In this document: piece after piece, positions 2,472 through 63,730 of the stretch
How positions within the stretch are numbered: the first letter of the stretch is position 1
How the letters are laid out: every line of letters starts with the position of its first letter
Assembly (NCBI GenBank): GCA_043822065.1
Contig: JBDRCC010000022.1
Coordinates: 1-64,000, forward strand
DNA from: JBDRCC01 sp043822065 [NCBI: archaeon]
Lineage (GTDB): Archaea > Undinarchaeota > CAZHTU01
Direction: 5' to 3'
DNA length: 64,000 nucleotides
Made by a program: the position numbers and the translations under genes
Notes under the pieces: generated by a model
Told to the model about the DNA's origin: nothing
Databases searched by the model: none
Seen by the model: the letters and a program-made list of their open reading frames with translations, nothing else

Positions 2472-3734
2472 CTAGGGACTATTGCAATTAGCGTTTATAT
2501 CTTTTTCTTTGGTAGAGTAAATGTCCCGTCCGACTCTTTCTAACTTACCTTGTCCATCCAGTTTTCTAAATATTGGATAAATACGCTCATTTTTGAAGCC
2601 GGTTTGAGAGCGGATCTCTCTGACTTTTAGAGGACCCCGTTTGAGAGCATCGATTAGTTTTAACTGGCTTGCTGCGCCATTGTGTTCATCTCTTGCGTTT
2701 AGAAGGTACTCAATGTAAAAAGATGCCTCTTTAAATCGGTGGTGTTGAAGGATATTTTTTAGCTCTGCATTTGAATTTGATGAATGTTTTAGTTTACCTT
2801 CTCTCTGGAGTAGGTAGAGTTCGCAAATAGATAGAAGCATGTCATTCTTTTCAAACCCCGAGAAATGTTTGCTATTATTGCCTATCTTTATGCCTTCGAT
2901 GAATCCACCAATTTGCAGAAAATTTGCTATAGGCGAGAAAGAAACGGTTGAAAGTCTGTTTTCAGATTTATACATATGTGTACCTACTTCATCGGCTATC
3001 TTTTGCCATTCATTAATTAGAATGGGATGAAAACAAGTCAACATTAGCTTGGGCCTACTGTATTTATTTTTAGAATTGGCAAGCGTAACACATCCTTCTA
3101 AAGAGATTGCCAACCTGAATGCTAATTCTTTTGTTTTCATTGAGCTTCTCTTCAAAAACTTTAATGTTGGTTGCTTCTCTATTAGGTACTGTTCCCAGTT
3201 CTGTTTGCCCCTTGCGGGCTGATGCTTTGTAACCGGAGTTCTGCAATAGATATCGTTTAAGAGTGCTTTTACCGTATTTGCTCGAGCAAAAACCGTAGAA
3301 ACACCTGTTCTCGCATCCCTAGTCATTCTAGGGTTTAAACCAAATTCCTTTAGCATGTCTGTAAAGATACCAAGTGCAACTTTGTCTGTGTTATGCAAAC
3401 GTATGATTTTATGTGAGTGCGAGGATGACCCGTCTGTGAGCAAGAAAACTGCGAGTAAATCTTTAAGCCCTTCCACGCCTATTTGTTTTTTCCAAATAGA
3501 GACTCTCTCCATATCATCTCCATTTGGTGAAGTATGTCTCCTGGAAAGCGTTAATAGATTTGTAGCAGACCTAGTTCGAACTTTTGTAAGGCTCAGAGGT
3601 TCATAACTTTTGAGACGGCCCCATGCCGTTGTGTTTGATACATTGTACAGCTTAGAGATAGTTAAAGTTGGTACGCCCAATTCATAAAGTGCAAGAATGT
3701 TTAAGTCATCGAACAGATTCGTTTTAGGTTTCAT
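2472..3734 (-). CDS. Free-standing LAGLIDADG protein with N- and C-terminal helix-turn-helix regions
   Basis: A 420-residue protein. Residues 17-42 look like a Hin/resolvase-type HTH. Residues 93-103 (LLAVFLLTDGS) and 206-216 (FRLAISLEGCV) are two degenerate LAGLIDADG motifs, keeping an acidic residue (D, E) before glycine as expected for catalysis. Residues about 355-405 look like a winged helix. Two LAGLIDADG repeats in one chain are typical of monomeric homing endonucleases; combination with HTH domains also recalls the bacterial regulator WhiA. No intein or intron splice motifs are seen, so it is free-standing. Codons and base composition are AT-rich compared with most neighbours, suggesting transfer. 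It abuts the mtaB start, so it may control or have displaced that gene's promoter. Confidence 0.7.
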   Translation of the reverse strand: MKPKTNLFDDLNILALYELGVPTLTISKLYNVSNTTAWGRLKSYEPLSLTKVRTRSATNLLTLSRRHTSPNGDDMERVSIWKKQIGVEGLKDLLAVFLLTDGSSSHSHKIIRLHNTDKVALGIFTDMLKEFGLNPRMTRDARTGVSTVFARANTVKALLNDIYCRTPVTKHQPARGKQNWEQYLIEKQPTLKFLKRSSMKTKELAFRLAISLEGCVTLANSKNKYSRPKLMLTCFHPILINEWQKIADEVGTHMYKSENRLSTVSFSPIANFLQIGGFIEGIKIGNNSKHFSGFEKNDMLLSICELYLLQREGKLKHSSNSNAELKNILQHHRFKEASFYIEYLLNARDEHNGAASQLKLIDALKRGPLKVREIRSQTGFKNERIYPIFRKLDGQGKLERVGRDIYSTKEKDINANCNSP

Positions 3735-12649: not shown

Positions 12650-13191
12650 TGGAATTTTTGTCGGCATTTGGCGCGTTGGTCTGCCATCAGCTGCCTGAAC
12701 GGTCGCTGTTTTTTGCAGGGCAGCAGGTATTCGTATGTGCTAGGGACGTTGGGATATACCTTGGAGTTCTTGCTGGATTTGCGCTGTTTTATGCCCTCAA
12801 GGAGCGCGGAAGCGAACTCAACCTGAGGCACCTGGTGCTTCTGATGCTGCCCGTTGCAGTCGACGGGCTGACGCAGCTTGCTGGCTGGGAGAGCACGAAC
12901 GGGCTCAGGCTCTTTACAGGAGGGCTTTTTGGCGTCGCAATGAGCTGCATGATGGTTTTCCTATACGACAGGATGTTTGAAACAGGCACATGCGAGACGC
13001 CCAGCGACAGGGCGGTGCTGGGAGCAGCCGGGATTGGCGGCTTGATGGTGGGTGTGGCTTACCTCCCGCAGAACGTTTATTCGTTTTGGCTTGTAAGCAT
13101 CGGAACGTTTATTAGTATTGTACTGGTAATTACTGGACTCGCCTTTTTTATAGGGCTTGTGCTTTACAGGAAGATAAGATGGAATCGCTAA
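12646..13191 (+). CDS. DUF2085 family membrane protein
   Basis: Two adjacent in-frame ATGs (12646, 12649) overlap the previous stop; either gives about 180 residues. The N-terminal signature CHQLPERS, then CARDVGIYLG, and later VDGLTQ with ESTNGLRLFTGGLFG match the DUF2085 family. Five or so membrane helices are visible. The family has conserved Cys and His that may bind metal, but its function is unknown. It sits between an unknown membrane protein and the presenilin homologue, overlapping the latter by 13 nt. Confidence 0.75.
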   Translation: MMEFLSAFGALVCHQLPERSLFFAGQQVFVCARDVGIYLGVLAGFALFYALKERGSELNLRHLVLLMLPVAVDGLTQLAGWESTNGLRLFTGGLFGVAMSCMMVFLYDRMFETGTCETPSDRAVLGAAGIGGLMVGVAYLPQNVYSFWLVSIGTFISIVLVITGLAFFIGLVLYRKIRWNR

Positions 13192-14015
13192 AGCCGCTGG
13201 CAACTGAAATCGGGATGTTCCTCACGACTGAGATGATTGCAGTCTATGTAGGGCTCGCCATGATTTCTGCGGGGATACGGGAGGAGTACATAATAGAGAG
13301 CACGGGGGAGGGCATCGGTGTTTTCGGGCTTGGGATGCTATTTGCCACGCTGCTGATACTGTTTATAATAAAGTACCTGAACCGCAAGATAGTCTTCCAG
13401 ATGCTCTTCGCCTGGCTGATATTCGTGGGCTCGCTTTTCGTGTTCGGGTCAGTGCTCATATTCCCTCTCGCCGCACTGCTTGCCGGGCTCGTAGTCGCAG
13501 CCAGGTTTCTCATGCCGAGGGTCTGGGTGCAGAATGTTGCGATGATACTGTCGATAGCAGGCATATCGCCGCAGCTTGCGATGTATTTCGGGACACCAAC
13601 CATAATCGCCATACTTCTCCTTGCTTCGGCGTACGACTATTATGCCGTTTTCAAGACGAAACACATGATAAAAATGTTCGAGAGCCTCATGAAGCACGAG
13701 ACGCCGTTCACGTTTGTAATCCCTGCCAAGGGCAGCATGAGTGGGGAAGTCAACGGCAAGTTGCACAAGAAGAAAAAGAAGGGGCAAAGGGAGTACTACC
13801 TTTTGGGAACGGGGGACATTGCGTTCCCGACGATTTTTGTAGTTGCGCTCCTTGCTGACTACTCGCCGCTCTCTGCGGCATTCGCATTTGCGGGAGCTAT
13901 TGTGGGGATGATAGTGGACCACCTCATCCTGATGAAAATGAAAACGGCAATACCTGCCCTGCCTGCGATAGCCGTCTGCAGCATAGCTGCATTTTTGCTT
14001 TCCCTGGTGGTGTGA
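13179..14015 (+). CDS. Presenilin / signal-peptide-peptidase family intramembrane aspartyl protease
   Basis: A 278-residue protein with about nine membrane helices. All three family motifs are present: YD in ASAYDYYAVF near residue 152, GxGD in GTGDIAFP near residue 211, and PALP near residue 259. The two aspartates form the catalytic dyad that cuts substrates within the membrane, and PALP shapes the active site. A lysine-rich cytoplasmic loop lies between the catalytic helices (about 195-205). It overlaps DUF2085 and is overlapped (GTGA) by the next gene. Natural substrates of archaeal homologues are not established; clearing signal-peptide remnants is a common proposal. Confidence 0.88.
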   Translation: MESLKPLATEIGMFLTTEMIAVYVGLAMISAGIREEYIIESTGEGIGVFGLGMLFATLLILFIIKYLNRKIVFQMLFAWLIFVGSLFVFGSVLIFPLAALLAGLVVAARFLMPRVWVQNVAMILSIAGISPQLAMYFGTPTIIAILLLASAYDYYAVFKTKHMIKMFESLMKHETPFTFVIPAKGSMSGEVNGKLHKKKKKGQREYYLLGTGDIAFPTIFVVALLADYSPLSAAFAFAGAIVGMIVDHLILMKMKTAIPALPAIAVCSIAAFLLSLVV

Positions 14016-15550
14016 ATTTGAGGTTTGAGCTTTCTGAAAGCGAAATTCCGAAATTTAGGCAGCCGCTGTCCAAGGTAATGACTTACGAGGAGGCAGAGCG
14101 ACAGCTTAAGGCGGACCTTGTCGTTGCAGTCGGGGACAGGGTAAGCTGGCAGTTTTCACAGTCCAAGAAAAGGCGGCCGGACGTGTTTATTGTGGACGGC
14201 GTGGAGCAGAGAAAAAAAGTACGGCTGAATTTCAGGACGCGGAAGAAGATACGGGCACGGAACGCCCCTGCGACCGTAAGCGAAGAGCTCTGGGAGGCAG
14301 TTAAGGCGTCCCTCAAGGAAAAAGATGTCAAGATTGTCGTAAGGGGGGAAGAGGACCTGGCAGTGATGCCAGTGGTGATGCTCGCACCAGAGGGGGCGCA
14401 AGTCGTTTATGGGCAGCCAAAAGAGGGCGTTGTGCTTCTGACGGTAACGGAGGAGCTGAAGGAGCGTGTCGCCAGCCTCTTCATTGATTACTACATCAAG
14501 CGCGGAAAGGAGTTTTTTGAACGCATACAAAAAAAGGACAAAGTCTTTGTAGTGCACCACACAGACGCCGACGGATGCACTTCCGGCGCCCTCGTCCTGA
14601 AGAAGCTGGAGGAGATTGGCGTGACCAAGGTGGAAGCGGCATCTCCGCAGAACAGCCCGGTCATTGAGAAAGGCATACGGGACAGGATAAAGGAGTTCGC
14701 GCCGGACGCCCGGATTGTGGTTGACATGGGAAATGAGAACACGAAATACCTGAGAAAATTGTCAAGGCGGATAAAGGTCTGCGTCATAGACCACCACAAG
14801 CTTTTCAGCCCTGATTTCGGAAGGACAGTCCTTGTGAACCCGCACCTTGCAAAGGCGCCGCTTTCCATGAACCCATCGGCAGCATATTTTGTGCAGAAGT
14901 GCACGCAGGGGCCTGCGTGGCTTTCTGTTGTAGGCAGCATAGGGGACAAGGGGCTTGGCAAGATACGGGACATGGAACGGCAGGTAAGGGAGGCTGACAA
15001 CATAACCATCTCCGAGCTTGAGGAGTGCGGCATACTAGTGAACTCGGCTGAAGCTTACGAGAACGGCGGGGCGCAGATTGCGCTCAAGGCGCTTCTTGAG
15101 TGCAAAAAGCCAAAGGACCTCCTTTACGGCTATAGGGAGAACACGGTCAAGCTCAGAAAGATGAAAGAAATGGTCCATGGATGCGTCCTGGACATAATAA
15201 AGAACCACAAAAAGAGCGCGAAGTTCTATAACGACGTGAAGCTGGTGGCCCTGGAAGTCGGGACACAGTACAGCATAAAGTCGAATGTCGCAGACTTCCT
15301 GCAGGACAAGCACCCGAAGTGGGTTGTTATGATATACCGGAAGGAAAACGGAAGGGTCAACCTCAGCGTCAGGACGCACACCAAGGTCGACCTTGCAAGC
15401 GCGCTTAAGGTTGCGCTTAAGGGGATAGGCAAGGGCGGCGGGCATGCACCGGCTGCCGGCGGCATGGTAAAGGCAAAGGACTTTGACAAGTTTATGGAGC
15501 GGTTCAAGGCGGAAGTGGGCAGGCGCCAGAAATTACTTATAAGGGGTTGA
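14012..15550 (+). CDS. Fusion of DUF359 (GTP-dependent dephospho-CoA kinase-like) and DHH phosphoesterase
   Basis: The GTG at 14012 overlaps the previous stop. Residues about 30-155 match archaeal DUF359 dephospho-CoA kinase: GDRVS, PDVFIVDGVEQR, NAPATVSEELW, RGEEDL near 112 and APEGAQVVYGQPKEGVV. That enzyme phosphorylates dephospho-CoA with GTP in the last CoA step. Residues about 180-512 are a DHH phosphoesterase: HHTDADGCTSGA, VVDMGNEN, VIDHHK and the DHHA1 motif GGGHAPAAGG, as in RecJ/GAN or NrnA-type nucleases. I know no described protein joining the two. The usual VDGEED is VRGEED here, so kinase activity needs checking. thyX follows 15 nt downstream. Confidence 0.8.
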   Translation: MNLRFELSESEIPKFRQPLSKVMTYEEAERQLKADLVVAVGDRVSWQFSQSKKRRPDVFIVDGVEQRKKVRLNFRTRKKIRARNAPATVSEELWEAVKASLKEKDVKIVVRGEEDLAVMPVVMLAPEGAQVVYGQPKEGVVLLTVTEELKERVASLFIDYYIKRGKEFFERIQKKDKVFVVHHTDADGCTSGALVLKKLEEIGVTKVEAASPQNSPVIEKGIRDRIKEFAPDARIVVDMGNENTKYLRKLSRRIKVCVIDHHKLFSPDFGRTVLVNPHLAKAPLSMNPSAAYFVQKCTQGPAWLSVVGSIGDKGLGKIRDMERQVREADNITISELEECGILVNSAEAYENGGAQIALKALLECKKPKDLLYGYRENTVKLRKMKEMVHGCVLDIIKNHKKSAKFYNDVKLVALEVGTQYSIKSNVADFLQDKHPKWVVMIYRKENGRVNLSVRTHTKVDLASALKVALKGIGKGGGHAPAAGGMVKAKDFDKFMERFKAEVGRRQKLLIRG

Positions 15551-15565
15551 CTTTCCCTTACGCCG

Positions 15566-16273
15566 ATGAGGGTAAAGCTTATTTCGCACACGCCAAATCC
15601 GGACATAGTATGTGCGGCGGCGGCTTACACAACGATAAAGGACAAGCCCCCAAGCGAGCTTTTCAAGGAGCTCATGAAGGACAAAAAAAGGGCTGAAAAA
15701 GTCCTCAGGAACGTCGTCGGGTACGGGCACCACTCAGTCATAGAGCACGCCTATTTCACGTTCAGCATCGAGGGCATCTCGAGGAGCTGCTCCCACCAGC
15801 TCGTGCGCCACAGGATGGCATCGTATTCCCAGCAGAGCCAGAGGTATGTCAAATTCGAGGAGATGAATTACGTCACGCCGAAGACCGTAAAGGGCGCGGT
15901 CAAGGCGAAATACGACAAAAAGATGGGAGAGATTGCTGACTTCTACCGCGAGATGCTTGACGCAGGGATACCTGCAGAGGACGCAAGGTTCGTATTTCCA
16001 AACGCAGCGCACACGAACATAGTCGTGACAATGAATGCAAGGTCGCTAATGAACTTCTTTGGCATAAGGTGCTGCTACAACGCGCAGTGGGAGATAAAGG
16101 GGCTCGCTGACAAAATGCTGGTTGAGGCCAGGAAGGTTGCCCCGGTAATATTCGAGAAAGCCGGGCCGCGCTGCCTGCATTACGGCTACTGCCCCGAAGG
16201 GGCAAGGACTTGCGGCAGGATTACCGAGGTGAGGGGAGAATATGAAAGAGGCGCTAAGGGAAAAGGTAAGTGA
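15566..16273 (+). CDS. thyX: Flavin-dependent thymidylate synthase
   Basis: The 235-residue protein carries the ThyX signature RHRMASYSQQSQRYV (RHR-x7-S). The enzyme methylates dUMP using methylene-tetrahydrofolate and FAD, releasing tetrahydrofolate rather than dihydrofolate, so no DHFR is needed for recycling. The activating serine and arginine lie in that motif, and N-terminal HSVIEH matches the flavin-binding region. It overlaps the 5-formyl-THF cyclo-ligase by 32 nt, linking both to the folate pool that also serves glyA and gcv genes downstream. Confidence 0.95.
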   Translation: MRVKLISHTPNPDIVCAAAAYTTIKDKPPSELFKELMKDKKRAEKVLRNVVGYGHHSVIEHAYFTFSIEGISRSCSHQLVRHRMASYSQQSQRYVKFEEMNYVTPKTVKGAVKAKYDKKMGEIADFYREMLDAGIPAEDARFVFPNAAHTNIVVTMNARSLMNFFGIRCCYNAQWEIKGLADKMLVEARKVAPVIFEKAGPRCLHYGYCPEGARTCGRITEVRGEYERGAKGKGK

Positions 16274-60202: not shown

Positions 60203-63200
60203 GTGGAGATAGAAGACTTATTGAAAACCCACCCAGGGCTTGAGAAGGTGGTAGGCATACTCAGGCAGAGCGGGGTCCAGAAGCTTTATCCGCCCCAGGC
60301 CGAGTGCTTCAGTAAAAAAGTCCTGGACGGAAAAAACCTTGTCCTTTCTATTCCGACGGCATCCGGGAAAACCCTTGTCGCGGAGATAGTCATGATGCAG
60401 CACGTCCTCGCAGGCAAGAAGGCAGTATACCTCGTGCCCCTGCGGGCGCTCGCCTCTGAGAAGTACCAGGAGTTCAGGGAAAAATACTCTGGGCTCTGCA
60501 GGGTGGGCATGTCGAGCGGGGATTACGACAGGGTGGATGCGGGGCTTGGCGCCTGCGACATAATCATCCTGACGATAGAGAAAATGGATTCGCTCATGCG
60601 GCACGACGTAAACTGGCTAAGCAAGATAGGCGTGGTCGTCGTCGACGAGATACACCTGCTTGACTCGCCGGACAGGGGACCGACCCTTGAGATGGTGATA
60701 ACAAAGCTGAGGAAGTACAAGCCCTCAATCCTTGCCCTTTCTGCGACAATAGAGAACAGCGACGAGCTGGCGCAGTGGCTTGGCGCGGAGCTCGTTGAGA
60801 GCGACTTCAGGCCGGTCAGGCTTTCGAGGGGGGTTTTCCTGGACGGAAAGGTGAGCTTTGACATAAAGGAGGACATTGAGCTGAATGATGAGGGCGACAT
60901 TTCGCTTGTCCTTGCAAAGGACACTGTCTTGCAGGGGGGGCAGTCCCTTGTATTTGTAAACAGCAGGCGCTCGGCTGAGGCGGAAGCAGAAAAAATCTCA
61001 AAGTCAATGTACTCGCTTTTGGGGGAAAAGGAGCGGAAGCTCCTTGCAAAGGCCGCAGAGGATGTGCTTGGGGCGCTTGAAACCCCTACCAAGCAGTGCA
61101 AGAGGCTTGCGAACTGCATACGGGGAGGCGCGGCGTTCCACCACGCAGGGCTGCACCTGAAACAGAGGGCTGTCGTGGAATCCTCATTCAAGGCCAACCT
61201 GATAAAAGTGGTTTCGGCGACGCCGACCCTTGCGGCCGGGGTAAACCTGCCAGCAAAGAGAGTGGTAATAAGGGATTATAAAAGGTATACTTCGTATGGG
61301 CTTGAACCGATTCCTGTTTTAGAGATCCATCAGATGTGCCTACCTTACACTGAAAAGATTTTGCTTGGTGATGGGTCGGAGGAGGAGATTGGACGGCTAG
61401 TAGAAGATAAAAAAAGGATAGGCGTTCTTAGTTATAACCAAGAATCTGATTCGATAGAGCCAAAGAAAATAGAGAGATTTTATAAAAGCAAGTCGAGGCA
61501 TTTCGTCGATATCGAGGTCTCTATAGGACATAAACTGAGGCTTACGCCAGACCATCCGGTTTTAGTATTCAACAACGGTAAAAAAACTTGGAAACGGGCT
61601 TGCAAACTGAAAAAAATGGACATGGTGCTTTGTCAGAATACTACACGCCGCCGCATGAAAAGCATACCTTACTTCTATGAATTCCTTAACAAAGACAGGT
61701 CGTATTTGGTTGGAAGAGGCGAGCTAATAAAGGATGCAAGGGAGAGGCTGAGATGTACGGAAAAGGAACTTGCTAAGAGTATCGGAGCTAGTTATAGATC
61801 GATGTGGCACTACAAAACAAATAGAAAAGCCATGCCAGCGAAAATTGCATTGGAATTATGCAAGATTCTGGAGTTGGATGGCGCTGGGATTACAAAAGTC
61901 TTTTCTAAAGTGAAAACTGCATATGGAAACACTATTAAACTCCCTCCAAAGATTTCTGAGGATTATCTGTGGTTGTGCGGCCTTATAGCAACAGACGGGA
62001 ATCTTCAAGAGGCTTATGACCGATGTGGTTCGAGGTACTGTAAGATACGTATTTTCAACAATAACCGAAAAATAATCAACAGGGCTACGTCTATATTGCG
62101 AGAATTCAATTTAGAGCCATGCTGTAGAAAGGTCGGAGATAAGTGTCACGCCATTGAGGTAGGTGCAACGCTGCTTGCAGATATCATTTCTATAAATTTT
62201 GGCATACCCTATGGAAACAAAACGGCTATTGTTAGGGTGCCAGATATAGTAAAATCGATGCCCCCGGCATATATTGGCTCATATCTCGCAGGTGTTTTCG
62301 ATGGTGACGGCAATTACTTTGAACTTAAAAAGAGTGGTGTAGTAAAGGGCAGGCGAGTGCTATTTTCTACAGGGAGCAAACAGTTTGCAGATGGAATTCA
62401 AAAACTTTTGACACGGATAGGTATAACCAGCACAGTTAGAAAGGAGCGTGGCGGAAAAACATTTGGGATACGGGGAAAACTGGTAACCTTTCCAAGAGCA
62501 AATTACACCATCAGCTTCTGCAAGAAAGAGTATATCAATAGATTCCATAGATTCGTCAGACCTGTGAAATGTTCAATACCGGCTGTCAGGTATAGCGACT
62601 ACCACAATATAAACAAGTTCTTTGACAGACCTGCTGAATACTCTTCCGTTCCAATAAAGAGGATTAGGCGAGTAGAGCTAAAGGATCCGGTGACTGCGTA
62701 TAACTTGGGAGTAAAAGATAACAACAATTACATAGCGTCTAACATACTGGTACACAACTGCGGCCGTGCCGGAAGGCCGAAGTATGACAGTGACGGGGAG
62801 GCCGTCCTGATAGCCAAAAGCCTTCCTGAGTACGAGCAGCTCTGGGAGCATTACATAGAGGGGCGGCCGGAGCCGATATCCTCGAAGCTTGGCGTCGAGC
62901 CGATACTAAGGACGCACATCCTTGGCATAATATCCCAGGGGCCGCTGACGCGGGAAAGCCTGGACAAGATGTTTGAGAGCACGTTCTACGCATTCCAGTA
63001 CGGAGATGTCTCCGCACTAGAGGAAATAATAAGCAGGGTTTTGGACTCCCTCTTTTCCTGGGGATTCCTAGAAGAGGAAGACCTGAAGTTCAGGTGCACC
63101 CGCCTTGGGAAGCGGGTGGCTGAGCTCTATATCGACCCGCTGACGGCATACGAATTCATCCGGCTTTTCGAGACTGAGATGGAGGAGATGGTCCTCCTCA

Positions 63201-63730
63201 CAATGATTTCCGATACGTCGGAAATGGGGATGCTTCCGGGCGTAAGGAGCGCTGAGGAGCCGTTCCTGTACGAGGAGTTCGAAAAGTACAGCCTTGACGA
63301 GGACAAGATACGGGCGTTCAAGAACGCGCTTGTGTTCAGGGACTGGATGGATGAAAAGACTGAGGACGACATACTCGAGAGGCATAACGTCGCGCCAGGG
63401 ATACTCAAGGTCAGGCTGGACATTGCAGACTGGCTCCTCTACTCCTGCGTAGAGATAAACGCAATCCTCAAGAGGAATGAGGCGGCAAAGATGGTCCGCA
63501 GGCTCCGCACGCGCCTCAGCTACGGAGTGAAGGAGGAGCTGTCCCTGCTCGTAAGGGTCCGCGGAATAGGCCGCGTCAGGGCAAGGCGGCTGTTTAGCGC
63601 TGGCATAAAAAAGCCGTCTGACCTGAACAGCAGAAACTGCACAAAAGTGTCAAACCTTCTTGGAAAAAAGACTGCGGAGAAGATATACTCTGACTTAAGA
63701 GCAAAAATCAGCAAGCGCGGAGTTCAGTAG
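60203..63730 (+). CDS. hel308: Hel308-type DNA helicase precursor containing an intein
   Basis: GTG start, 1175-residue precursor; after removal of the 474-residue intein the mature protein has about 701 residues, the usual Hel308 length. Motif I IPTASGKTLVAE near residue 51, motif II VVVDEIHLLD near 148, LALSATIENSDELA (III), VFVNSRRSAEAEA (IV) and TPTLAAGVNLPAKRVVIRD (V). Motif VI, MCGRAGRPKYD, is interrupted by the intein between M378 and C853. C-terminal helix-hairpin-helix RVRGIGRVRARRLF near 1115. It unwinds forked DNA during repair and fork restart. The 75 bp before the intein is AT-rich unlike the rest. Confidence 0.95.
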   Translation: MEIEDLLKTHPGLEKVVGILRQSGVQKLYPPQAECFSKKVLDGKNLVLSIPTASGKTLVAEIVMMQHVLAGKKAVYLVPLRALASEKYQEFREKYSGLCRVGMSSGDYDRVDAGLGACDIIILTIEKMDSLMRHDVNWLSKIGVVVVDEIHLLDSPDRGPTLEMVITKLRKYKPSILALSATIENSDELAQWLGAELVESDFRPVRLSRGVFLDGKVSFDIKEDIELNDEGDISLVLAKDTVLQGGQSLVFVNSRRSAEAEAEKISKSMYSLLGEKERKLLAKAAEDVLGALETPTKQCKRLANCIRGGAAFHHAGLHLKQRAVVESSFKANLIKVVSATPTLAAGVNLPAKRVVIRDYKRYTSYGLEPIPVLEIHQMCLPYTEKILLGDGSEEEIGRLVEDKKRIGVLSYNQESDSIEPKKIERFYKSKSRHFVDIEVSIGHKLRLTPDHPVLVFNNGKKTWKRACKLKKMDMVLCQNTTRRRMKSIPYFYEFLNKDRSYLVGRGELIKDARERLRCTEKELAKSIGASYRSMWHYKTNRKAMPAKIALELCKILELDGAGITKVFSKVKTAYGNTIKLPPKISEDYLWLCGLIATDGNLQEAYDRCGSRYCKIRIFNNNRKIINRATSILREFNLEPCCRKVGDKCHAIEVGATLLADIISINFGIPYGNKTAIVRVPDIVKSMPPAYIGSYLAGVFDGDGNYFELKKSGVVKGRRVLFSTGSKQFADGIQKLLTRIGITSTVRKERGGKTFGIRGKLVTFPRANYTISFCKKEYINRFHRFVRPVKCSIPAVRYSDYHNINKFFDRPAEYSSVPIKRIRRVELKDPVTAYNLGVKDNNNYIASNILVHNCGRAGRPKYDSDGEAVLIAKSLPEYEQLWEHYIEGRPEPISSKLGVEPILRTHILGIISQGPLTRESLDKMFESTFYAFQYGDVSALEEIISRVLDSLFSWGFLEEEDLKFRCTRLGKRVAELYIDPLTAYEFIRLFETEMEEMVLLTMISDTSEMGMLPGVRSAEEPFLYEEFEKYSLDEDKIRAFKNALVFRDWMDEKTEDDILERHNVAPGILKVRLDIADWLLYSCVEINAILKRNEAAKMVRRLRTRLSYGVKEELSLLVRVRGIGRVRARRLFSAGIKKPSDLNSRNCTKVSNLLGKKTAEKIYSDLRAKISKRGVQ
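61337..62758 (+). mobile_element. Intein with LAGLIDADG homing endonuclease in hel308 motif VI
   Basis: It begins with Cys1 (CLPYTEKILLGDG) after QM and ends ...NILVHN before the C of CGRAGRP. Block B has TPDHPV, blocks F/G VTAYNLGVKDNNNYIASNILVHN split by few residues. The endonuclease region has LCGLIATDGN (about precursor residue 591) and LAGVFDGDGN (about 694), both with catalytic aspartate, so cutting activity is probable. An XRE-like HTH (about 510-560) precedes the first motif. It is much more AT-rich than the extein. The insertion point in motif VI is a known helicase intein site. Confidence 0.93.

What the first reader, a model, noticed from the sequence alone, without database searches (positions are those of the whole stretch)
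14012..15550. Fusion of a DUF359 dephospho-CoA-kinase-like domain with a DHH phosphoesterase
Seen: one uninterrupted frame carries DUF359 motifs (GDRVS, IVDG, GEEDL, YGQP) then complete DHH/DHHA1 motifs (DADG, IDHHK, GGGH). Known: DUF359 is the archaeal GTP-dependent dephospho-CoA kinase; DHH proteins are nucleases or nanoRNases. Inference: the chain may couple CoA or nucleotide-pool synthesis to breakdown of CoA-capped RNA, oligonucleotides or pAp-like compounds. The fusion is new to me.
Basis: partly seen in the sequence, partly recalled or inferred. Interest (0 to 1): 0.78.

Follow-up and report, generated by a model that had tools for sequence, protein, structure and literature searches.

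The report
CoA-making kinase fused to nucleotide-cutting enzyme
Some little-known small archaea carry one protein that joins an enzyme for the last step of making coenzyme A to an enzyme that cuts nucleotides, which may point to an undescribed link between cofactor supply and nucleotide breakdown.

Summary
Window 14012-15550 (+) is one 512-aa frame with DUF359 (E 2.8e-32), DHH (1.2e-10) and DHHA1 (4.2e-11) domains, all above Pfam cut-offs. It is not an assembly join: 5 of 6 genomes held for the phylum of an Undinarchaeales MAG encode it, and codon bias keeps one frame. The window's MCM is sister to that phylum. No full DUF359-DHH fusion was seen in the other groups sampled. The dephospho-CoA kinase Asps and the DHH motifs are kept in 6 of 6 fusions. 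The DHH half is compact, not RecJ. The five fusion-bearing genomes show no CoaB and no PPAT-class hit, which suggests salvage; but CoaB is also missed in 11 of 20 other DUF359 genomes. A relative of the DHH half is fused to an NAD-making enzyme in one other archaeon. Most likely: a CoA-salvage kinase joined to a small-nucleotide phosphoesterase. The DHH substrate and the coupling are inferred. New variant of a known kind.

The parts
14012..15550 (+). ORF of the DUF359-DHH-DHHA1 fusion protein, 512 aa (GTG start overlapping the upstream stop; TTG at 14018 possible)
   Evidence: relatives
14084..14497 (+). DUF359 / GTP-dependent dephospho-CoA kinase domain (residues 25-162 by alignment to 8jvc; Pfam 51-157)
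14132..14137 (+). G41-D42; D42 is the equivalent of catalytic Asp48 of TK1697
14195..14197 (+). D62, equivalent of catalytic Asp67 of TK1697
14345..14356 (+). G112-E113-E114-D115; D115 is the equivalent of Asp125 of TK1697
14540..14884 (+). DHH domain (residues 177-291)
14564..14575 (+). DADG metal motif, residues 185-188
14789..14797 (+). DHH triad, residues 260-262
15245..15517 (+). DHHA1 domain (residues 412-502)
15434..15445 (+). GGGH motif, residues 475-478
13179..14015 (+). upstream neighbour: presenilin/signal-peptide-peptidase family membrane protease; its stop overlaps the start of the fusion gene
15566..16273 (+). downstream neighbour: ThyX thymidylate synthase

Best explanation
The gene makes one bifunctional enzyme. 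The N-terminal half phosphorylates the 3'-OH of dephospho-CoA with GTP (the DPCK reaction), mainly to salvage dephospho-CoA that comes from a partner organism or from nucleic-acid breakdown. The C-terminal half is a compact metal-dependent DHH-DHHA1 phosphoesterase that hydrolyses small 5'-phosphorylated nucleotides (dinucleotides, very short oligonucleotides or 3'-phosphorylated adenine nucleotides), leaving a free 3'-OH. Shown here: homology, catalytic residues, conservation of the fusion, and no recognisable CoaB or PPAT-class gene in the five fusion-bearing genomes searched. Inferred: activity of both halves, the DHH substrate, and that the halves are coupled in cofactor scavenging.
For: Pfam and PDB matches of both halves. 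TK1697 Asp48/67/125 equivalents kept in 6 of 6 fusions; of 13 positions invariant in 27 other DUF359 rows (start Met left out) 10 are invariant in the fusions too. DHH motifs invariant in 6 of 6. Fusion in 5 of 6 genomes of the phylum. The six DHH halves form one clade, bootstrap/SH-aLRT 96/96; by MCM the window is sister to four genomes that carry the fusion, SH-aLRT 94. CoaB (PF04127) in 0 of 6 genomes with 14 of 14 controls positive; the four PF01467 hits in fusion-bearing genomes score best as NadM or HldE/RfaE, not PPAT. Undinarchaeota are reported to lack vitamin biosynthesis and perhaps to use extracellular DNA (PMC7414124, section 10 part 1 of 2). The DHH profile aligns over both domains with the archaeal PAP phosphatase 8a8k. 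The same DHH family is fused to NMN adenylyltransferase in one genome. Bacterial NrnA works 5'-3' on RNA of 2-4 nt, and a 5' phosphate is likely critical for its binding (PMC9757072, passages).
Against: No assay. Relatives of the DHH half stand in varied gene contexts (CoA ligase, KH/TopoVI, DnaK/DnaJ), so no single pathway is implied. CoaB is also not found in 11 of 20 other DUF359-bearing genomes, so its absence is not special to the fusion. Four of the five genomes are MAGs by title, the fifth is unnamed, and no completeness is given. GGGH argues against a strict pApase. NCBIfam DPCK models stay far below their clade-specific cut-offs (82.4 of 300 bits). In the best DUF359 tree the window's half pairs with a stand-alone DUF359 of G119 (SH-aLRT 93, long branches) and not with the other fusions, though one clade of fusions is not rejected (p-AU 0.266).
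Confidence: 0.45

Rival explanations
1. Kinase-phosphatase pair: the DHH half removes the 3'-phosphate of CoA (or of pAp, a CoA by-product), opposing or cleaning up after the kinase, as in the NAD kinase/NADP phosphatase MJ0917.
For: Archaeal DHH enzymes that remove the 3'-phosphate of pAp exist (PMC8268124, abstract and passages; PMC10322725, passages). MJ0917 is a bifunctional NADP phosphatase/NAD kinase (PMC4518329, passages). Another DUF359 is fused to a HAD domain with a weak PNKP-phosphatase match, E 3.7e-5, below the Pfam cut-off. The DHH family is also fused to NMNAT, and in one locus a NAD kinase-like gene precedes a MBL-DHH pair.
Against: Motif VII is GGGH, not the K form of Pyrococcus pApase. 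Four bacterial NrnA-type enzymes showed little or no pAp hydrolysis at low enzyme levels (PMC9757072, passages). I recall no DHH enzyme that acts on CoA itself.
Confidence: 0.2
2. The two halves work independently: a general nanoRNase and a DPCK happen to share a chain, for joint expression or stability only.
For: In the phylum of G009 98 of 100 genomes have a match to the fusion profile, nearly all to its DHH half, and only three show a DUF359 match; the stand-alone relatives lie in varied contexts.
Against: The fusion is kept in 5 of 6 genomes and in the divergent window lineage at about 30% identity; a second fusion of the same DHH family to another cofactor enzyme.
Confidence: 0.2
3. The DUF359 half no longer makes CoA: it is a kinase for another nucleotide or a binding module that presents substrate to the DHH half.
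For: The five fusion-bearing genomes lack PPAT-class and CoaB matches. The window's half has a six-residue gap in a loop against the other fusions, S for an otherwise invariant G at residue 20, and A85 and A87 where TK1697 has P and G.
Against: The three catalytic Asps are kept in 6 of 6, and 10 of 13 family-invariant positions are unchanged.
Confidence: 0.13
4. Assembly or frameshift artefact.
For: None found.
Against: Five genomes with the same layout, of which G006, G007 and G008 are close relatives; no frame change in codon bias.
Confidence: 0.01

Closest known systems
GTP-dependent dephospho-CoA kinase TK1697 (arCOG04076, DUF359; PDB 8jvc, matched by sequence)
   Same: Domain, aligned catalytic Asp48/67/125
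   Different: 8jvc chain is 177 aa with this domain alone; here it is followed by DHH-DHHA1, in a phylum without recognisable CoaB (0 of 6)
DUF359-PPAT fusions of uncultured archaea (PMC6650551, section 7)
   Same: DUF359 in a fusion with a cofactor-related enzyme
   Different: That partner is the preceding CoA-pathway enzyme; here it is a phosphoesterase
Archaeal RecJ / GAN nucleases (6tvv, 5ghr, 7bhi)
   Same: DHH and DHHA1 domains; among the best-scoring solved relatives
   Different: About 100 aa longer than this half; 92.8 of 360 bits for NCBIfam RecJ_archaeal; separate clade (100/100); G004 has its own RecJ (507.7 bits)
Archaeal PAP phosphatase MtPAPP (8a8k) / PyapApase
   Same: Compact DHH-linker-DHHA1; profile match over both domains
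   Different: Motif VII: K in PyapApase, GGGH here
NadM-DHH fusion of G364 (L158)
   Same: Same compact DHH family with an N-terminal cofactor-making enzyme
   Different: Partner is NMN adenylyltransferase (NAD), not DPCK (CoA); seen in one genome only
MJ0917 NAD kinase/NADP phosphatase; bacterial NMNAT-Nudix bifunctional proteins
   Same: Logic: cofactor-making enzyme joined to a phosphohydrolase
   Different: Other phosphohydrolase families (recalled); MJ0917 seen as passages of a review, NMNAT-Nudix only as NCBIfam model names

Membership tests
DUF359 / archaeal GTP-dependent dephospho-CoA kinase | Match to PF04019 above the gathering score | tested here: met
   111.4 bits, cut-off 25
DUF359 / archaeal GTP-dependent dephospho-CoA kinase | Catalytic Asp48, Asp67, Asp125 (TK1697 numbering) | tested here: met
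   D42, D62, D115 by alignment, in 6 of 6 fusions
DUF359 / archaeal GTP-dependent dephospho-CoA kinase | Reaches the NCBIfam cut-off of a clade-specific equivalog model | tested here: inconclusive
   82.4 bits against 300 for the Thermococcales model, below the cut-off; that cut-off defines a clade, not the whole family
DUF359 / archaeal GTP-dependent dephospho-CoA kinase | GTP-dependent 3'-phosphorylation of dephospho-CoA | not testable with these tools
   needs an enzyme assay
DHH-DHHA1 phosphoesterase | PF01368 and PF02272 above gathering scores | tested here: met
   42.1/28.1 and 43.7/25.9 bits
DHH-DHHA1 phosphoesterase | DxDG, D, DHH, D metal motifs and GGGH | tested here: met
   invariant in 6 of 6
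Archaeal RecJ/GAN nuclease | NCBIfam RecJ_archaeal cut-off and length of about 450 aa | tested here: not met
   92.8 of 360 bits; the half is about 350 aa; separate clade
Archaeal DHH pAp phosphatase (PyapApase type) | Compact DHH-linker-DHHA1 layout | tested here: met
   profile positions 21-344 of 363 match 21-318 of 335 in 8a8k, E 9.8e-14
Archaeal DHH pAp phosphatase (PyapApase type) | K in place of the last His of motif VII | tested here: not met
   GGGH in 6 of 6 fusions; K287 in PyapApase
NanoRNase NrnA | Three Arg of motif VI that bind the 5' phosphate (BsNrnA R262, R264, R266; PMC8268124) | tested here: inconclusive
   one Arg (R454) invariant in 6 of 6; the BsNrnA sequence was not aligned
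NanoRNase NrnA | 5'-3' hydrolysis of 2-4 nt RNA | not testable with these tools
   needs an enzyme assay

The most novel reading that the evidence does not exclude
This compact DHH family is a cofactor-recovery hydrolase of small-genome archaea. It attacks very short RNAs that carry a cofactor at the 5' end (dephospho-CoA-RNA, NAD-RNA) and frees the intact cofactor with its 3'-OH. The fused enzyme, DPCK in Undinarchaeota, would then turn dephospho-CoA into CoA; in the NadM-DHH fusion the partner would handle NAD. Organisms without de novo CoA synthesis would thus draw cofactor from RNA. DHH cleavage should leave exactly the free 3'-OH that DPCK needs (inference from chemistry). [quoted passage not shown] against it, another 5'-3' exonuclease, aCPSF2, is already implicated in NAD-RNA turnover there (PMC10663502, passages).
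Probability: 0.1. Interest if true: 0.8.

Novelty: new variant of a known kind. Interest (0 to 1): 0.45.

Why it matters
It ties the last CoA enzyme of archaea, identified in 2019, to a compact phosphoesterase family of unknown substrate that is common in the small archaeal genomes sampled. A second fusion of that family to an NAD-making enzyme gives a concrete lead for its substrate: adenine-dinucleotide cofactors or what they leave behind. It also suggests how host-dependent archaea that seem to lack the upstream CoA enzymes may still obtain CoA.

Tried and rejected
A genome-contig scan with the fusion protein found no relative (16 stretches matched a pattern, none confirmed). An MCM query then gave 80 archaeal loci; none of the 80 holds the fusion in the stretch fetched around MCM (four weak DHH-half matches, best E 4.6e-4).

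AlphaFold2 on the window protein alone failed (mean pLDDT 34.1), and no fold search was made. I did not hand in an alignment with relatives, because they came from the genome search, which is not among the sources that the tool says it accepts.

A strong 'no CoA pathway' claim was weakened by its control: CoaB (PF04127) was found in 9 of 20 other DUF359-bearing genomes, one of the nine marginally (1.2e-5). Gene neighbourhoods looked supportive at first: a CoA-ligase gene and a MBL gene upstream of DHH in 6 loci, in one of them (L186) with two genes between MBL and DHH. Other contexts are as common (KH/TopoVI in 7 loci, six of them with RIO; DnaK/DnaJ in 3), and loci of one phylum share descent, so I give contexts little weight. 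An apparent long DHH frame in G594 (726 aa with one stop) resolved into a 347-aa DHH gene beside a 368-aa gene. G106 looked at first like a split fusion; it is DUF359-HAD plus a separate DHH gene. Membership of RecJ and of the PyapApase type was tested and not met.
Full report
What is there. The frame 14012-15550 (+) encodes 512 aa without interruption. Pfam finds DUF359 at residues 51-157 (2.8e-32), DHH at 177-291 (1.2e-10) and DHHA1 at 412-502 (4.2e-11), each above its curated cut-off. Among solved structures the N-terminal half matches the GTP-dependent dephospho-CoA kinase 8jvc (2e-15) and the C-terminal half archaeal RecJ/GAN nucleases. The GTG start overlaps the stop of a presenilin-like membrane protease gene, and ThyX and 5-formyl-THF cyclo-ligase genes follow.

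Not an artefact. Codon usage favours frame 0 in 16 of 16 windows of 40 codons across the gene. GC3 of the halves is 0.648 and 0.694, against 0.669-0.73 in five neighbouring genes. Of 16 genomes reached through archaeal MCM loci, four carry the fusion at full length. In the phylum of G007 (an Undinarchaeales MAG) 5 of 6 genomes held carry it; G017 shows no match. The five proteins read as frames of 495-502 aa and are 29-32% identical to the window protein. G006, G007 and G008 are close relatives of each other; G004, G018 and the window are well separated.

Which organism. No genome is held for the window. Among the 80 MCM loci the four best long matches are those of G004, G006, G007 and G008 (702-713 bits; next 628). 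In a tree of 35 MCM rows (the window and the first 34 matches longer than 620 residues) the window is sister to these four, SH-aLRT 94. So the window probably comes from a deep-branching relative of Undinarchaeota.

How far the fusion reaches. With the six-protein profile A1, no match over both whole halves was seen in 100 genomes of the phylum of G009 (E <= 1e-10), 10 of that of G011, 19 of that of G015 (E <= 1e-22), 194 of that of G014 (E <= 1e-30), 12 further genomes (E <= 1e-15) and 34 of the phylum of G338 (E <= 1e-24). Some genomes occur in more than one call. One match in G106 ran from DUF359 into the DHH columns (5-211) but proved to be DUF359-HAD. I had no centre from which to search Thermoproteota or Asgard archaea, and Thermococci and Halobacteria were touched only through single genomes. 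The thresholds would hide very divergent fusions.

Descent. In a tree of 38 DHH rows the six fusions form one clade (bootstrap/SH-aLRT 96/96), apart from four RecJ-type rows of 442-470 aa (100/100). In the tree of 33 DUF359 rows the window's half pairs with a stand-alone DUF359 of G119 (SH-aLRT 93, long branches) and not with the other fusions, but holding all six together is not rejected (p-AU 0.266). One old fusion with vertical descent is the simplest reading; a later exchange of the window's kinase half is not excluded.

Active sites. TK1697 mutants D48A and D67A grew much more slowly, D125A less so (PMC6650551 section 13). The PDB alignment puts D42, D62 and D115 of the window protein at these places, and all six fusions keep them. 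Thirteen positions are invariant in the 27 other DUF359 rows, the start Met left out; the fusions depart at three of them (G20 to S in the window, E114 to D in three, A125 to G in one). In the DHH half D185, D187, G188, D238, D260-H261-H262, D312, R454 and G475-G476-G477-H478 are invariant in the six fusions.

Nature of the DHH half. It is about 350 aa and fails the RecJ_archaeal model (92.8 of 360 bits); G004 has a separate protein that passes it (507.7 bits). A profile of six fusion halves and ten stand-alone relatives scores archaeal RecJ2 and GAN best through the DHH domain. With the compact PAP phosphatase 8a8k it aligns over profile positions 21-344 of 363 (E 9.8e-14), as it also does over both domains with the longer bacterial RecJ chains 8y30 and 5f54. 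The pApase of Pyrococcus has K287 at the place of the NrnA motif VII His (PMC8268124, passages); the fusions have GGGH. NrnA works 5'-3' on RNA of 2-4 nt, and competition tests suggest that a 5' phosphate is critical for binding; the same study finds pAp an unlikely substrate of bacterial NrnA (PMC9757072, passages). A small-nucleotide hydrolase is therefore likelier than a processive nuclease, but its substrate is open.

CoA context. CoaB/DFP (PF04127) is found in 0 of 6 Undinarchaeota-phylum genomes, with 14 of 14 control genomes positive. PF01467, which holds PPAT (recalled), gives no hit in G006, G007 and G008 and two hits each in G004 and G018, which score best as NMN adenylyltransferase or HldE/RfaE; the two hits of G017, which lacks the fusion, were not classified. 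Against this, CoaB was found in only 9 of 20 other DUF359-bearing genomes, so gaps in draft genomes or divergent enzymes must contribute. The describers of Undinarchaeota report a lack of amino-acid and vitamin biosynthesis, few transporters, and possible growth on DNA (PMC7414124 section 10, part 1 of 2). Salvage of dephospho-CoA is the most economical use of a lone DPCK. Whether the window's own organism has CoaB or PPAT is unknown.

A second fusion of the same DHH family. In G364 (phylum of G338) a 537-aa protein carries an archaeal NMN adenylyltransferase domain (NCBIfam PRK01153, 7.8e-35, 120 bits, just under the cut-off of 127) before the DHH module. It lies beside KH and TopoVI genes, as plain relatives of 363-377 aa do in six other loci. 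Of the 28 of 34 genomes there with a match it was the only one with a frame over 416 aa, and no match over both parts was seen among the 100 of 371 genomes with a match in the phylum of G009 (E <= 1e-25, at most three candidates scored per genome). So the family has been joined to two enzymes that make adenine-dinucleotide cofactors, CoA and NAD. Each is probably one event, so this is a lead, not proof.

Neighbourhoods. In four of five relatives (G004, G006, G007, G008) a MobA-like nucleotidyltransferase gene overlaps the start of the fusion gene. Pfam finds that domain in both copies tested, and a SWIM finger in the G008 copy only. In G018 and in the window no such gene precedes the fusion. 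I chose 40 regions; 38 hold a DHH relative from outside the Undinarchaeota phylum, one the fusion of G006, one no DHH. Contexts vary: CoA-ligase and MBL-fold genes upstream in 6 loci (in L186 two genes lie between), a NAD kinase-like gene and MBL in one, KH/TopoVI in 7, DnaK/DnaJ in 3 (names beyond the ten proteins are by eye or by similarity cluster). These do not single out one pathway.

Known or new. DUF359-PPAT fusions are in print (PMC6650551 section 7), and domain fusions were used to link DUF359 to CoA (PMC6393860, passages). For DUF359 with DHH, one search of the held library (terms arCOG04076, DUF359, DHH, fusion) gave a single paper with three of the four terms and no DHH in it. A search for NMN adenylyltransferase with DHH, archaea and domain fusion listed 8 papers, none with such a fusion in its title or the start of its abstract (none opened). 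Architecture databases were not available. I rate it a new variant of a known kind: two known families in a conserved combination that I did not find reported.

Noticed in passing
L158:1489-3102 (-), genome G364: NMN adenylyltransferase (NadM) domain fused to the same compact DHH-DHHA1 family, beside KH and TopoVI genes as plain DHH genes of relatives are.
   Followed up: partly
L115:5826-6899 (-), genome G106: DUF359 fused to a HAD-type domain (weak PNKP-phosphatase match), a different DUF359-phosphohydrolase fusion.
   Followed up: partly
L175:1978-2994 (-), genome G430: NadM-type nucleotidyltransferase domain fused to DUF488.
   Followed up: no
L181, L182, L185, L186, L188, L192; L183: CoA-ligase (ADP-forming type) and MBL-fold hydrolase genes upstream of DHH in six loci (in L186 with two genes between); in L183 a NAD kinase-like gene precedes MBL and DHH.
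   Followed up: partly
L209, L211, L212: A DHH gene of the same family sits between DnaK and DnaJ genes (named by eye).
   Followed up: no
window 60203-63730 (+): Archaeal DEAD-box helicase (archaeal helicase domain 4) with an intein carrying a LAGLIDADG domain.
   Followed up: no
window 2472-3734 (-): 420-aa frame with a weak LAGLIDADG match next to a UPF0004/radical-SAM/TRAM gene.
   Followed up: no
L081-L084, L121 and L123, upstream of the fusion: MobA-like nucleotidyltransferase gene, with a C-terminal SWIM zinc finger in the G008 copy, overlapping the fusion gene in four genomes; function unknown.
   Followed up: partly
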